Positions 1-4,351 of a DNA stretch of 58,898 bases are shown piece by piece. The stretch spans positions 1 through 58,898 of the forward strand of contig NZ_CAKZNK010000010.1 in NCBI RefSeq assembly GCF_937129525.1, read 5' to 3'. The notes below the pieces were generated by a model. The model was given only the letters and a program-made list of their open reading frames with translations, was not told where the DNA came from and did no database searches. Source of the DNA: an uncultured Chloroflexus sp. Its GTDB lineage: Bacteria > Chloroflexota > Chloroflexia > Chloroflexales > Chloroflexaceae. The position numbers and the translations under genes are program-made. Numbering within the stretch: the first letter of the stretch is position 1; each line of letters starts with the position of its first letter.

Positions 1-20
1 CTTCGAGGCGATTGGTGGCT

Positions 21-117
21 GGCGATAGGCGATAGGCGATAGCCGATAGCCGATAGGCGATAAGCAATAGGCAATAGCCGATAGGCGATAGGCGATAAGC
101 GATAGCCGATAGCCGGG
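21..117. repeat. Degenerate heptanucleotide tandem repeat (GCGATAG)n
   Basis: About 13 copies of a 7-base unit, GCGATAG, with variants CCGATAG, GCGATAA and GCAATAG, run head to tail. The same unit reappears as one or two copies near 596-611. It occurs in the opposite orientation (CTATCGC/CTATCGG) near 770-790 and 821-860. The array is noncoding. It sits at the outer edge of an accessory patch with a CRISPR remnant and a transposase fragment. Confidence 0.85.
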
Positions 118-361: not shown

Positions 362-513
362 AGTTCGGACAATGCCTGTAGGGGTGAACCGTATATCTCG
401 CCGTCGATGGCCGCCATCACGTGGTTGTCCCCACGCCTGTGGGGGTGAACCGGACAGACGACAGCAACCGGGCAGACCACCCAGGTTGTCCCCGCGCCTG
501 TGGGGGTGAACCG
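362..513 (+). CRISPR. Three-repeat type I-E-like CRISPR remnant
   Basis: Three 30-base units at 362-391, 423-452 and 484-513 are spaced exactly 61 bases apart, the period expected for a 29-base repeat plus 32-base spacer of subtype I-E. Units 2 and 3 differ at one base (GTTGTCCCC[A/G]CGCCTGTGGGGGTGAACCG in 29-base form). They contain the self-complementary CCCC..GGGG core and the GAACCG end typical of I-E repeats. Unit 1 matches at about 22 of 30 positions. The two spacers (392-422 and 453-483) are unrelated to each other. No further repeat is found at the next expected positions, and no cas gene lies in the window, so this is a remnant or the end of an array whose cas genes are elsewhere. 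Confidence 0.85.
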
Positions 514-860: not shown

Positions 861-1017
861 GTCTTTACCATTCCCAGATCAAGACAATTCGGTTATCGGA
901 TTAATAACAAACATTTAGTAATTTCACGTCAACAACCCGGTCAGATCTGCTTTCATGAACCCGTCATCACGCAATCACGTTTTGGAAATGACACACAATC
1001 CTTGCGAGGTAGCTGCG

Positions 1018-1518
1018 ATGGAACTGACCGATCAGCTCAAAGCGGAGCTTATCGCAATTGCCAGCTCACTGCGTGGAAGCGAGCGACGGATCTTCATGGC
1101 ACGCATGGTCAAAGCATTGGGTCCGGGTGGTCAACGTCTGGCCGAGCGTGAATTGGGCTGGAACCGCACTACTATTCGAAAAGGAATGCGGGAACTGGAA
1201 CAGGGTCTCACGTGTTTCGATGGGCATCACTTGCGCGGTCGCAAACCGGTAGAAGCGCGCCTCCCTAACCTGCTGCTCGACATCCGTGAAATTGTTGAAG
1301 ACTGGCGCAAAGCGCACGCTGAATGCTGGACCGATCTGCGCGCACCCTGTCTGAGCATTACCGAGATTCGCGAGGCGCTGGTTACTCAGAAGGGGTACGA
1401 TCCTGACTCACTTCCCTCGAATCAGACTATTGCTGCTCGTTTGCGCGCTCTGGGGTACTATCCACGACGCTCGATCCGTTATGTGCGCCGACGACAATCG
1501 ATGCAGCCGATACGTTGA
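1018..1518 (+). pseudogene. Truncated ISAzo13-type transposase (N-terminal part)
   Basis: The product matches the N-terminal helix-turn-helix region of ISAzo13-family transposases as I know them: a GSERRIFMAR block, GPGGQR.AERELGWNR-TIRKGMREL, a GRK block and LPNLL-DI. It stops at about 166 residues, before any DDE catalytic region, and no downstream reading frame continues the family pattern. I chose ATG 1018 because GAGGT lies about 7 bases upstream and the family homology begins there; an upstream in-frame ATG at 955 adds 21 residues without recognisable homology. No terminal inverted repeats or target duplications were found. It is most likely the decayed remnant of an insertion sequence next to the CRISPR remnant. 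Confidence 0.7.
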
Positions 1519-1949: not shown

Positions 1950-3536
1950 ATGGAATCGCAAATGCAAGCTTTTGTCGACTCGTTGCGGAGAAACATGACC
2001 GCAGAAGATGTGGTCAATCTCGAAGCCTGCATGGACTGTAAGGCCTGCGGCGAAGCATGCGCATGGTATCTGGTAACCGGAGACGAAAAGCTGCATCCGA
2101 CCCACAAAACCGGATTTATTCGCCAGATTTACCGTCGCTACATGACCATTGAGGGCCAGATCGGCGGCGCTTTGGGCCTTGTGCCGACTCCAACTGTGGC
2201 CGACTTGCAAGAGCAGATGCCTTACTTCTGGGCCTGCACAGCTTGCGGTCGTTGCACCCTCTCATGCCCGGCTGGAATCAGCACCCGACGCATCGTGCGC
2301 CTGGCGCGAGCTGCATACGCCGATTCGGGATTGAGTTACGCTAACCCCACCATCCGATCGATTATTGAAAATACTGAGCGCCACCGCCACAGCTTCGGCC
2401 TCACGCCGGCCCAGGTCATTGGCCGGGTCGGTCTGTTTTTACGCAGCGAAGGGATCGAAGTGCCGATTAACGTGTACGGCGCCGAGATACTCTTCGTCTG
2501 TCCGGCGGCAGGCAACGCAAGAATTCCCGATTATGGCATTAAGCTGATCAAAATCCTCAATGCGGCTGGCGTGAGCTATACCATTTCACCGTATGTCATT
2601 GATACAGGCACCGAAATCGATCATATTGCTGTTCATCATCAACTGTCGCGGCAGATGCTGGAAGATTGGGAACAGGAGGCTGAGCGACTCGGTGTTGACA
2701 AGATTTTACTGGTTGAATGCGGCTGCGATACGCGCACCCTTTACGCCGAGGCCACCGAAACGCTGGGCCGTCCCTTCCGGTTCCCGATCATCAGTGTGGA
2801 TGCGCTCATGCTTGACCTGATTAAACAAGGTCGTTTGCCGGTAGAAAAGACCAATCTGAGCGTGACGCTCCACGATCCGTGTTACGCTACCCGGCTCTCG
2901 GGATTGGGCGATCTATCGCGCGAACTGCTCTCGCTGGTGACCAACAATTTCGTTGAGATGACGCCAAACCGCGAATATAACTATTGCTGCAACGGCGGCG
3001 CCGGCGGAATGCGTCTCCCCGAAAACACCCCGATCCGCCGACAAATTTCGGTGTTGAAAGCGAACCAGATTCGGGCTACCGGGGCCGAATTTGTGACCTC
3101 GCCGTGCGTGGTCTGTACCCTGTCGCTCGAAGATACCTGTCAGACCTACGGCCTGAGCAAGTCGGGTGATCGCATGGCGCTGGTGTTGTTTGAGGTGGTG
3201 TACGAAGCGATGGCGGCAGCGCTGGCCAAGCGTGGCGCGCTCGACCAGATGCTGGTGCCGGCAGAACTGCGGAATCGCGATCACGACTTCTTTATGGCGC
3301 ACAGTCTGGAAGGATGGCTGGCAGCCCTGATGGAGAGTGCCGAATTTCCGGCGTTGCTCGACTGGCTTGAAAAGGACGACATCGTCAAACGCTTTAGCAA
3401 AGACCATCCCGAAGTGTACGACCATCTGCGCTCGTGGCGCGATATGGCGCGACCGATCACGCCACCGGATCAGGCAATACCGGCTCCATCGGTGAAGCAA
3501 ACCGTCAATTCTCGCGCGGGAGGGAGATCACAATGA
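1950..3536 (+). CDS. (Fe-S)-binding oxidoreductase, HdrD/DsrK/GlpC-like, with CCG domains
   Basis: A 528-residue soluble iron-sulfur protein. Near residues 30-40 is CMDCKACGEAC and near 105-117 is CTACGRCTLSCP, two CxxCxxCxxxC ferredoxin-type 4Fe-4S motifs. The C-terminal half has two cysteine-rich CCG-type regions. The first contains VECGCD. The second has DPC, then CCNGGAGG about 34 residues on, then SPCVVC about 38 residues later, the spacing of the heterodisulfide-reductase noncubane-cluster domain. The family takes electrons from, or gives them to, quinone through a membrane cytochrome b partner, which is what the next gene encodes (ATGA overlap at 3533-3536). I chose ATG 1950 for its GGAAGGT site; GTG 1911 would add 13 residues. 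The substrate cannot be told: disulfide/thiol and hydroxyacid chemistry are both precedents in the family. Confidence 0.85.
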   Translation: MESQMQAFVDSLRRNMTAEDVVNLEACMDCKACGEACAWYLVTGDEKLHPTHKTGFIRQIYRRYMTIEGQIGGALGLVPTPTVADLQEQMPYFWACTACGRCTLSCPAGISTRRIVRLARAAYADSGLSYANPTIRSIIENTERHRHSFGLTPAQVIGRVGLFLRSEGIEVPINVYGAEILFVCPAAGNARIPDYGIKLIKILNAAGVSYTISPYVIDTGTEIDHIAVHHQLSRQMLEDWEQEAERLGVDKILLVECGCDTRTLYAEATETLGRPFRFPIISVDALMLDLIKQGRLPVEKTNLSVTLHDPCYATRLSGLGDLSRELLSLVTNNFVEMTPNREYNYCCNGGAGGMRLPENTPIRRQISVLKANQIRATGAEFVTSPCVVCTLSLEDTCQTYGLSKSGDRMALVLFEVVYEAMAAALAKRGALDQMLVPAELRNRDHDFFMAHSLEGWLAALMESAEFPALLDWLEKDDIVKRFSKDHPEVYDHLRSWRDMARPITPPDQAIPAPSVKQTVNSRAGGRSQ

Positions 3537-4351
3537 TCACGCTCTTAAATCTGATTGCGCCAATTGCGCTGGCTATCTTCATCGTTGGCGCCAGCGTTCG
3601 ACTTGGTCGGTATGTTCGCGTGCTGATCACTCACCGGCATCCGCATGGCATTTCGCCGACGTTTATGTATGCGCCGCGCCGGTTAGGGATGCTTGAGTCG
3701 TTGAACGCCGTACTCTTTGGCCCCTTCAAGCACTTCTATCGGGGCGCCAATCCGACCTGGGGCCGCGGCTATCTGTACTACCACGTTGCCATTATTACGG
3801 AGGTGATCGGTTACACCATCTCGGCATTAATTGTGCTGGCCAATATCGTGATGGGACGACCGGTGCCAGACGTTGAGCTTCATCTCAAAGAGAGCTTCAA
3901 CTACTCTCCGGCGAATCTGCTCGCGTTGATCTTCGGCAACGGCGAAGCGCTCCAGTCGCAGTTCCTGTTCGGTGACTTCGCGCCGTATTTTGTCGGTATC
4001 ACCTGGATTGCCGTCGGTTTCGCAGTGGTTGGGAATCTGCACTTGATGGTAGTGCTCTTCCGACGCTGGAGCGGCGCGGTCGTTGGCGATATTGACCACG
4101 CGGCGAAAGGAATGCGCACGAAGGGATATATGCCGTGGGATCGGCTGGTAGTGCGGACAACTGTGTTCCTGATTATCTGGACGGAGCTGTTTGCCCGGTT
4201 GCATCTGGTCGAGGGGATTGTCTACGTCCATGCCTTGCTCGGTCTGATCCTGTTTACGCTCTTCCCATTCACGTATCTGTTCCACATGGCTTACAATTTC
4301 CTGGCCGTCTTCTACGCAGTCCGCCGACGAATGGCGCGAACGATCGCCTGA
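3533..4351 (+). CDS. Cytochrome b-like membrane anchor, NarI/DsrM/HdrE-like
   Basis: A 272-residue protein with about five hydrophobic segments: residues 3-22, about 84-105, 145-170, 215-232 and 240-262. Several histidines lie in or next to them (YYHVAII, NLHLMVV, RLHLVEG, YVHALLG, LFHMAYN) and are suitable as ligands for two b-hemes. The layout resembles the nitrate-reductase gamma/DsrM family. Its ATG overlaps the stop of the preceding Fe-S gene and has a GGGAGGGA site 8 bases upstream, so the two are almost certainly translated together. The likely role is electron exchange between the quinone pool and the cytoplasmic CCG/4Fe-4S subunit. The direction of electron flow is not decided by the sequence. 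Confidence 0.82.
   Translation: MITLLNLIAPIALAIFIVGASVRLGRYVRVLITHRHPHGISPTFMYAPRRLGMLESLNAVLFGPFKHFYRGANPTWGRGYLYYHVAIITEVIGYTISALIVLANIVMGRPVPDVELHLKESFNYSPANLLALIFGNGEALQSQFLFGDFAPYFVGITWIAVGFAVVGNLHLMVVLFRRWSGAVVGDIDHAAKGMRTKGYMPWDRLVVRTTVFLIIWTELFARLHLVEGIVYVHALLGLILFTLFPFTYLFHMAYNFLAVFYAVRRRMARTIA

What the first reader, a model, noticed from the sequence alone, without database searches (positions are those of the whole stretch)
1950..4351. Two-gene HdrD/DsrK-like Fe-S plus cytochrome b membrane module of unknown substrate
An ATGA-coupled pair encodes a protein with two 4Fe-4S motifs and CCG-type domains (noncubane cluster spacing C-x34-CC-x38-CxxC) and a NarI/DsrM-like heme membrane anchor. 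The module has the core parts of HdrDE- and DsrMK-type complexes, yet no dsr, hdr or methanogenesis genes lie nearby. It may feed or drain the quinone pool with a thiol, disulfide or hydroxyacid substrate.
Basis: partly seen in the sequence, partly recalled or inferred. Interest (0 to 1): 0.6.

Follow-up and report, generated by a model that had tools for sequence, protein, structure and literature searches.

The report
Split iron-sulfur membrane electron wire
Two neighbouring genes encode an iron-sulfur protein and its membrane partner that probably pass electrons between a cell chemical and the respiratory chain; they form a family of their own, and in several light-using green bacteria they sit beside the genes of an unusual carbon-fixation cycle.

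Summary
A (1953-3536) carries two 4Fe-4S motifs and a complete noncubane-cluster motif; B (3533-4351) is a five-helix NarI-type membrane protein. A folds like EtfD and HdrB. A is not DsrK, TmcB or HmcF: 31 family rows form one clade (99/99) apart from them, and A scores 184 bits against the DsrK cut-off of 400. HdrD could not be compared. Two ligand changes mark the family. The histidine that caps the noncubane cluster in EtfD is cysteine (Cys272) in 32 of 32 rows, histidine in 20 of 20 DsrK/TmcB/HmcF-type rows. In B one of four heme histidines is tyrosine (Tyr94) in 24 of 24 rows, so one b heme is likelier than two. [quoted passage not shown] In this window the pair is not beside it; four order members carry the pair without meh, and it occurs sporadically in archaea, spirochaetes and one Peptococcaceae genome. 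Best reading: a menaquinone-linked thiol/disulfide-type oxidoreductase with an altered active site; substrate unproven.

The parts
1953..3536 (+). Gene A, Fe-S/CCG subunit (527 aa from ATG 1953; an upstream GTG at 1911 would give 541 aa, and residue numbers in this report count from that GTG)
2028..2060 (+). First 4Fe-4S motif, Cys40/43/46/50
2235..2267 (+). Second 4Fe-4S motif, Cys109/112/115/119
2499..2501 (+). Cys197, aligned with EtfD Cys503 (a ligand of cluster D1); Cys in 32 of 32 family rows, in none of 20 DsrK/TmcB/HmcF-type rows; also Cys in the EtfD-like rows and E. coli GlpC
   Evidence: PMC13083937 sections 8-9
2718..2729 (+). Cys270-Gly-Cys272-Asp273; Cys272 stands where EtfD has His583, which caps the noncubane cluster
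   Evidence: PMC13083937 sections 8-9
2880..3116 (+). Complete CCG domain, Cys324, Cys359-360, Cys399, Cys402: predicted noncubane [4Fe-4S] site
3533..4351 (+). Gene B, five-helix NarI-type membrane subunit (272 aa); ATGA overlap with A
3782..3814 (+). Helix 2: His84 (predicted heme ligand) and Tyr94, the place of the second His in DsrM-type rows (and, by recall, of His66 in NarI)
4229..4285 (+). Helix 5: His233 and His251, 18 apart, each in 24 of 24 family rows
955..1518 (+). Gene H, 187 aa, weak hit (below cut-off) to the first part of the ISAzo13-type transposase model; found upstream of A on the same strand in 12 genomes (window, six g32, five g11); function unknown, perhaps DNA-binding

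Best explanation
A and B form a membrane complex, in effect EtfD split into two genes. A lies in the cytoplasm and B carries the electrons into the membrane. Likely path: substrate or partner <-> noncubane [4Fe-4S] cluster in the second CCG domain of A <-> two cubane [4Fe-4S] clusters <-> one b heme in B between His84 and His251 <-> menaquinone near Tyr94/His233. The family is distinct: at the noncubane cluster the capping histidine of EtfD and DsrK-type proteins is a cysteine (Cys272), and two of the four ligands of EtfD's cluster D1 remain (Cys197, Cys270). I infer that Cys197, Cys270 and Cys272 form a reactive cysteine site next to the noncubane cluster, so that the enzyme exchanges electrons between menaquinone and a thiol/disulfide-type substrate or thiol protein. 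In Chloroflexus and Roseiflexus relatives it shares the history of the 3-hydroxypropionate bi-cycle cluster and may serve the redox or thiol balance of that pathway. Shown: genes, motifs, conservation, clade, predicted folds, linkage, co-occurrence. Inferred: cofactors (homology), complex formation, menaquinone, thiol chemistry, pathway role, direction. My odds: electron wire to a quinone 0.85; family apart from DsrK/TmcB/HmcF 0.9; thiol/disulfide-type substrate 0.4; any functional tie to the bi-cycle 0.45.
For: Fold of A (model pLDDT 92.8): EtfD Z 28.4 over 410 residues, LutA Z 22.5, HdrB Z 19.9-21.0. Fold of B (pLDDT 85.9): the top eight rows are NarI, Z 10.6-12.3, then EtfD Z 9.3, next 7.1 (the tool warns that Z under about 13 can be chance for helical proteins). 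Ligand mapping to EtfD with ligands as given in PMC13083937 sections 8-9: D2 Cys637/672/673/709/712 + His583 correspond to A Cys324/359/360/399/402 + Cys272; D1 Cys503/581/584 to Cys197/Cys270/Asp273; the D1 ligand Cys538 has no Cys counterpart. Cys272 and Cys197 in 32 of 32 family rows; at the Cys272 place His in 20 of 20 DsrK/TmcB/HmcF-type rows. Tree: 31 family rows one clade, 99/99, in 100% of 200 bootstrap trees. B: His84, His233, His251 and Tyr94 in 24 of 24. Linkage: the A match starts 0.36-1.8 kb after the Meh match, same strand, in 11 of 14 genomes of genera g1 and g32; the neighbours in L129 include Mct over its cut-off. Co-occurrence in 82 genomes: 23 both, 4 pair only, 8 Meh only, 47 neither, Fisher p 6e-10; by genus p 0.004. 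Shared history: Chloroflexus-Roseiflexus identity is 83-86% for A and 77-81% for Meh, against 58-62% for A (to same-family G030, G032) and 70-73% for Meh (to G030); RpoB shows the reverse, 85% against 87-89% to G030, G032.
Against: Four genomes carry the pair without Meh (G019, G025, G032, G034; G025 is 84% complete), and none of them has Mct over its cut-off; nor has any of 8 carriers outside Chloroflexales. Eight order members have Meh and no pair. In the window genome and G009 the pair is not linked to meh, in G069 it is 10.7 kb away, and in the nine other Chloroflexales carriers with Meh it is on another contig of a draft, so the link may be hitch-hiking. The co-occurrence test takes no account of kinship. 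RpoB of same-family G019 is only 76-78% to Chloroflexus, below Roseiflexus, so the reversal rests on G030 and G032; for g11 no RpoB value was obtained. Cys-for-His could be a mere ligand swap that leaves the cluster non-catalytic; E. coli GlpC has Phe there, so this place is not His in all CCG proteins. No coordinates of the models were available, so no distances were measured, and no complex of A and B was modelled. One Altiarchaeales copy (L058) and one G019 copy (L088) have no detectable B next to A. No expression or biochemical data were found: the main texts of PMC9316378 and PMC8004040 were searched only for a few terms, their supplements could not be read.
Confidence: 0.45

Rival explanations
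1. A split EtfD: the complex takes electrons from an electron-transfer flavoprotein (acyl-CoA dehydrogenases) and gives them to menaquinone.
For: EtfD is the best structural match of A by far (Z 28.4) and also matches B (Z 9.3). PMC13083937 (discussion passage seen) says that FadF and DgcB lack the D1 cysteines and suggests that they still accept electrons from ETF.
Against: The window genome already has an EtfD-like protein with NarI-type anchor, two CCG stretches and the CxHC motif (L004). The family has lost the capping His found in EtfD and in 20 of 20 DsrK/TmcB/HmcF-type rows. No etf gene was recognised beside the pair, but most neighbour ORFs were only read by eye (the output of 13 was cut).
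Confidence: 0.22
2. The CCG/anchor part of a hydroxyacid dehydrogenase (GlcF-, LutA- or GlpC-like) whose flavin subunit is encoded elsewhere.
For: CCG proteins of this kind work with FAD subunits, as in the E. coli glc operon; PMC8004040 passages report glycolate oxidase transcripts in C. aggregans.
Against: A scores 25 bits for GlcF and 45 for GlpC against cut-offs of 333 and 278; E. coli GlpC and GlcF branch far outside, on long branches. The window genome has its own GlpC (over cut-off), GlcF-like and LutA-like proteins (the last name is my reading). No flavin gene was recognised next to the pair, mostly by eye.
Confidence: 0.12
3. A DsrMK-type complex that reduces the DsrC trisulfide or another sulfur carrier of the Dsr pathway.
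For: DsrK is the best curated family (184 bits); two-gene Fe-S plus cytochrome b plan as in DsrMK; two carriers, G158 and G160, do have DsrC.
Against: Cut-off for DsrK is 400 bits. All five DsrK rows have His at the Cys272 place and Asp at the Cys402 place; A has Cys at both. DsrC not found in 21 of 23 carrier genomes, including all 15 Chloroflexales searched. The archaeon G158 has a separate true DsrK (L115, 550 bits).
Confidence: 0.05
4. The bi-cycle link is hitch-hiking (a question of role, compatible with any of the above): the pair sat beside the cluster when that was transferred and has an unrelated, general respiratory role.
For: Linkage only in the two genera that share the transferred cluster; pair without Mct over cut-off in G019, G025, G032, G034 and in 8 archaeal, spirochaetal and Peptococcaceae genomes; in the g11 locus L137 it lies between an aconitase and a 2-oxoacid dehydrogenase E2 gene instead.
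Against: Co-occurrence with Meh beyond the linked genera (genomes in g2, g3, g6, g11, g14) and presence in all 14 genomes of g1 and g32.
Confidence: 0.45

Closest known systems
EtfD (mycobacterial ETF:menaquinone oxidoreductase, PDB 9ojn; PMC13083937)
   Same: Same chain of parts: five-helix anchor with one bis-His b heme, two cubane 4Fe-4S, two CCG domains (paper sections 8-9); Z 28.4 for A, 9.3 for B
   Different: One fused protein; capping His583 and full D1 ligand set present; proposed partner ETF; this family has two genes, Cys for His583 and only two of the four D1 cysteines
DsrMK (DsrK NF045796, DsrM)
   Same: Two genes, Fe-S/CCG protein plus cytochrome b; best curated family for A (184 bits)
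   Different: Below the 400-bit cut-off; His at the Cys272 place and Asp at Cys402 in 5 of 5 DsrK; DsrM rows have the second helix-2 His that B lacks; no DsrC found in 21 of 23 carriers
TmcBC and HmcFE (sulfate reducers)
   Same: CCG subunit plus small cytochrome b subunit
   Different: 147 and 121 bits against cut-offs 735 and 750; separate clades; belong to larger complexes with multiheme cytochromes (recalled)
HdrDE of methanogens
   Same: Plan (CCG protein plus NarI-type cytochrome b, recalled); PMC13083937 section 9 reports that EtfD overlays an HdrDE model
   Different: HdrD sequence could not be obtained, so no direct test. None of the 56 loci is titled as a methanogen, but methanogens were not searched by themselves. 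In HdrB both CCG domains hold a catalytic noncubane cluster with a bridging cysteine (PMC13083937 section 9)
NarI of nitrate reductase
   Same: Fold of B; first His of helix 2; His spacing 18 in helix 5 (NarI spacing recalled)
   Different: NarI His66 is Tyr94 here, as in the laboratory mutant NarI-H66Y (1y5l, second match); that this mutant lacks the distal heme is recalled

Membership tests
DsrK | NCBIfam NF045796 score at or above 400 bits | tested here: not met
   183.6 bits
DsrK | Branches with reference DsrK | tested here: not met
   five DsrK rows one clade 100/98; family a separate clade 99/99
DsrK | DsrC present as partner | tested here: not met
   not found in 21 of 23 carrier genomes, window genome included; present in G158 and G160
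TmcB / HmcF | NCBIfam scores at or above 735 / 750 bits | tested here: not met
   147.4 and 121 bits; separate clades
HdrD (HdrDE) | Branches with methanogen HdrD | not tested
   no HdrD sequence could be fetched with the tools
HdrD (HdrDE) | CoM-S-S-CoB substrate, methanogenesis | not tested
   not searched for in the carrier genomes
EtfD | Overall fold of soluble part | tested here: met
   Z 28.4, rmsd 3.5 over 410 residues
EtfD | Capping His (His583) and D1 ligands Cys503/538/581/584 | tested here: not met
   Cys272 for His583; Asp273 for Cys584; no Cys for Cys538; Cys197 and Cys270 kept
EtfD | Anchor and Fe-S parts fused in one protein | tested here: not met
   two genes
EtfD | Accepts electrons from ETF | not testable with these tools
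   needs biochemistry
GlpC / GlcF | NCBIfam scores at or above 278 / 333 bits | tested here: not met
   45.4 and 25.2 bits
NarI-type cytochrome b (anchor) | Five-helix NarI fold | tested here: met
   helices at 2-33, 74-106, 139-176, 202-222, 229-252; top eight rows NarI, Z 10.6-12.3, below the tool's caution level of about 13 for helical proteins; Foldseek alone gave E 0.36
NarI-type cytochrome b (anchor) | Four His ligands for two b hemes | tested here: not met
   His84, His233, His251 and Tyr94 in 24 of 24; a second helix-2 His at +10 or +13 in 11 of 11 DsrM/TmcC/HmcE-type rows

The most novel reading that the evidence does not exclude
An unrecognised auxiliary enzyme of the 3-hydroxypropionate bi-cycle: a menaquinone-linked oxidoreductase whose noncubane [4Fe-4S] cluster is capped by cysteine instead of histidine and faces a three-cysteine site (Cys197/Cys270/Cys272), with a one-heme Tyr-substituted NarI anchor. 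Its job would be to couple a thiol or CoA-type disulfide pool to the quinone pool during phototrophic carbon fixation.
Probability: 0.15. Interest if true: 0.8.

Novelty: new variant of a known kind. Interest (0 to 1): 0.5.

Why it matters
The 3-hydroxypropionate bi-cycle is one of few known carbon-fixation routes, and its electron and thiol side reactions are little known (my judgement). A conserved membrane redox pair that shares the transfer history of its gene cluster is a testable candidate for a missing part.

Tried and rejected
DsrMK membership: rejected on score, tree, ligands and lack of DsrC. Photosynthesis link: 26 of the 27 carriers in the order have a reaction-centre hit over the cut-off (G066, 82% complete, has only a weak one), but 37 of the 63 such genomes lack the pair and by genus p is 0.08, so the bi-cycle link is the better one. 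Second b heme: held unlikely on Tyr94. Neighbourhoods in Altiarchaeales (L058), a Peptococcaceae (L024), Pyrohabitans (L015) and spirochaetes showed no shared neighbour with a clear function; ten neighbour proteins were scanned, the rest read by eye. In two of three spirochaete loci an EtfD-like gene follows B. FdhD and an FdhF/YdeP-type gene lie beside the pair in L129 (scanned) and, by eye, in L130 and L133; by eye not in L131 or the Roseiflexus-type L132; not pursued. Foldseek alone gave no match under E 0.001 for B; the VIA-align second look ranked NarI first.

Literature, all in the held library. DsrMK-like + HdrD: none. Roseiflexus/HdrD/heterodisulfide reductase, any two: 109 papers, 15 listed. 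DsrMK or HdrD-like: 185 papers, 25 listed. Caur_0180 to Caur_0185: two papers, one of them a chance hit. Chloroflexus + HdrDE: one paper, listing seen. No listed title or abstract start pointed to the pair; most hits were not opened. PMC3150298 (passages) names Caur_0180 (meh) and Caur_0184. By gene order the pair should be Caur_0181/0182, an inference. Shih 2017 and Zarzycki 2009 are not held and are recalled only.

Rows left out before counts: A3 holds 32 family rows; L072, L083, L090 (frame broken), L091 (truncated) and duplicate loci were not given. The tree has 31 family rows (L067 left out). B counts use 24 family rows; not all B copies were given. G004 was counted as Meh-positive on a 90-residue fragment at 71%; G002 and G063 (41-51%) were counted as negative. 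In one search the RpoB frame of G024 was wrong and is not used.
Full report
Observation. Gene A (1953-3536) and gene B (3533-4351) are open, overlap by ATGA and lie on the + strand. Pfam finds one CCG domain and a 4Fe-4S dicluster. B has only a sub-threshold Pfam hit to NarI, yet its predicted model (pLDDT 85.9) has five long helices and ranks NarI first (Z 10.6-12.3, under the tool's caution level of about 13 for helical proteins).

What A is. NCBIfam ranks DsrK first (184 bits, cut-off 400), then TmcB (147, cut-off 735) and HmcF (121, cut-off 750). Twenty more distant relatives were labelled with the same library: five DsrK, three TmcB and two HmcF over cut-off, ten below. A tree of 53 rows puts the 31 family rows in one clade (99/99, 100% of 200 bootstrap trees); the 20 other relatives form the other group (92/94, just under the star), and E. 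coli GlpC and GlcF lie far outside on long branches. That call warns of meeting long branches among several outside rows and in one join that includes the window's side. HdrD, FadF and DgcB could not be included.

Active site. The model of A (pLDDT 92.8) matches EtfD at Z 28.4 over 410 residues, then LutA and HdrB. The EtfD paper (PMC13083937; sections 8 and 9 read) gives the ligands: linear cluster D1 by Cys503/538/581/584; noncubane cluster D2 by Cys637/672/673/709/712 and His583, the histidine being held responsible for D2 being non-catalytic. Two alignment modes with EtfD-like proteins and the HMMER alignment to EtfD agree on A Cys197, Cys270, Cys272 and Asp273 for Cys503, Cys581, His583 and Cys584. 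For Cys538 they differ: MAFFT gives Thr232, HMMER Tyr228; neither is Cys. Cys272 and Cys197 hold in 32 of 32 family rows; in 20 of 20 DsrK/TmcB/HmcF-type rows the first is His and the second is not Cys. E. coli GlpC has Phe and Cys there. All five DsrK rows have Asp at the Cys402 place; the family keeps Cys. So the family has a full noncubane site with a cysteine where its nearest relatives have histidine, plus two further cysteines in the first CCG domain. Whether these make a redox-active thiol pair, a Cys3Asp cluster or a simple ligand swap cannot be decided from sequence.

Membrane subunit. His84, His233, His251 and Tyr94 hold in 24 of 24 family rows; Tyr94 stands 10 residues after His84, where seven DsrM-type rows have a second histidine (four TmcC/HmcE rows have it at +13; 11 of 11 together). 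At the His233 place 10 of those 11 have His. EtfD has one b heme on His78/His241 and a putative menaquinone beside it. By analogy B should hold one b heme (His84/His251), with Tyr94 and His233 near the quinone or at a high-spin second heme. The NarI-H66Y mutant structure (1y5l) is the second match of the model.

Distribution. In the order, 27 of 82 genomes carry the gene at E below 1e-60, and the 158-genome class sample adds none. Outside, at E below 1e-90: 1 of 23 genomes in the phylum of Candidatus Pyrohabitans (69% identity), 3 of 29 in the phylum of the Altiarchaeales genome, 3 of 296 in the spirochaete phylum sample. One Peptococcaceae genome carries it; its relatives were not searched. 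The patchy pattern points to horizontal transfer. DsrC was not found in 21 of 23 carriers. B lies beside A in 25 of 28 order loci (misses: L086 and L091 at contig ends, and L088) and in 18 of 20 of the closer loci (misses L022 and L058).

Context. In g1 (Chloroflexus-type) and g32 (Roseiflexus-type) genomes the A match follows the Meh match, same strand, by 0.36-1.8 kb in 11 of 14 genomes (6 of 8 and 5 of 6); G069 has 10.7 kb, G009 and the window genome are unlinked. Meh itself has no NCBIfam hit; its name rests on its place next to the smtA/smtB-like genes and on PMC3150298, whose passages list meh as Caur_0180, smtA/B as Caur_0179/0178, mcl as Caur_0174 and mch as Caur_0173. In L129 mct is identified over its cut-off (TIGR04253, 909 bits, cut-off 725); two class III CoA-transferase-like genes and a CitE-like (mcl) gene score below theirs. 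Identity between the two genera is 83-86% for A and 77-81% for Meh, against 58-62% (A; G030 and G032) and 70-73% (Meh; G030) to members of the window's own family, while RpoB shows the reverse, 85% against 87-89%. G019 does not fit this (RpoB 76-78%), and g11 could not be compared. So A shares the unusual similarity of the bi-cycle cluster, most simply by joint transfer. Across the order the pair and Meh occur together in 23 genomes, pair alone in 4, Meh alone in 8, neither in 47 (Fisher p 6e-10; by genus 0.004; no correction for kinship). The 4 pair-only genomes and 8 outside carriers lack Mct over the cut-off, so the pair does not need the bi-cycle. In the g11 locus L137 it lies between an aconitase and a 2-oxoacid dehydrogenase E2 gene.

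Other CCG systems of the window genome: GlpC (over cut-off), a GlcF-like protein (301 bits, cut-off 333), a LutA-like one (my reading) and an EtfD-like protein with the usual CxHC motif. The pair is a further system beside these, which weakens the EtfD and hydroxyacid rivals without excluding them.

Gene H (955-1518) lies upstream on the same strand in the window, in all six g32 genomes and in all five g11 genomes, but was not found in the roughly 1.5 kb upstream in the other seven g1 genomes. Its dN/dS is about 0.1 to 0.3 (dS is high in the window comparisons). It may be a regulator derived from an ISAzo13-type transposase; the Pfam hit is below cut-off.

Conclusion. A real, conserved two-gene electron wire of its own family: known plan, altered active site, unknown substrate, shared history with a carbon-fixation cluster.

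Noticed in passing
window 423-512: Two copies of a type I-E-like CRISPR repeat (GTTGTCCCC[AG]CGCCTGTGGGGGTGAACCG), 61 bases apart, with a degenerate third before them; a relic or array end near the contig start. The type is recalled.
   Followed up: no
window 6-115 and 595-858: Degenerate GCGATAG-type repeats, and their reverse complement further on, around the CRISPR-like stretch.
   Followed up: no
window 955-1518: Conserved small gene upstream of the pair in three lineages, weakly like the first part of the ISAzo13-type transposase model, dN/dS about 0.1-0.3.
   Followed up: partly
L127 7237-9519, L023 11791-14115: In two spirochaete carriers an EtfD-like Fe-S/CCG protein follows B; domains and the CxHC motif were checked in L127 only.
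   Followed up: partly
L112, L108, L118, L120, L115: All five DsrK rows have Asp in place of the fifth cysteine of the noncubane motif, unlike TmcB, HmcF and the new family.
   Followed up: no
G171 and G172, CCG frames of 188-196 aa with one TGA: Several CCG-domain frames are interrupted by a single in-frame TGA at similar length, as expected if selenocysteine were used there.
   Followed up: no
L129 11270-14509: FdhD and an FdhF/YdeP-type molybdopterin oxidoreductase lie beside the pair on the other strand; PMC3150298 discusses Caur_0184 as a possible NuoG substitute.
   Followed up: partly
G161 C27:32312-32587 (L117): An N-terminal fragment of A (about 100 codons, 42% identical to A) lies about 6 kb before the full gene in an Altarchaeum genome.
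   Followed up: no
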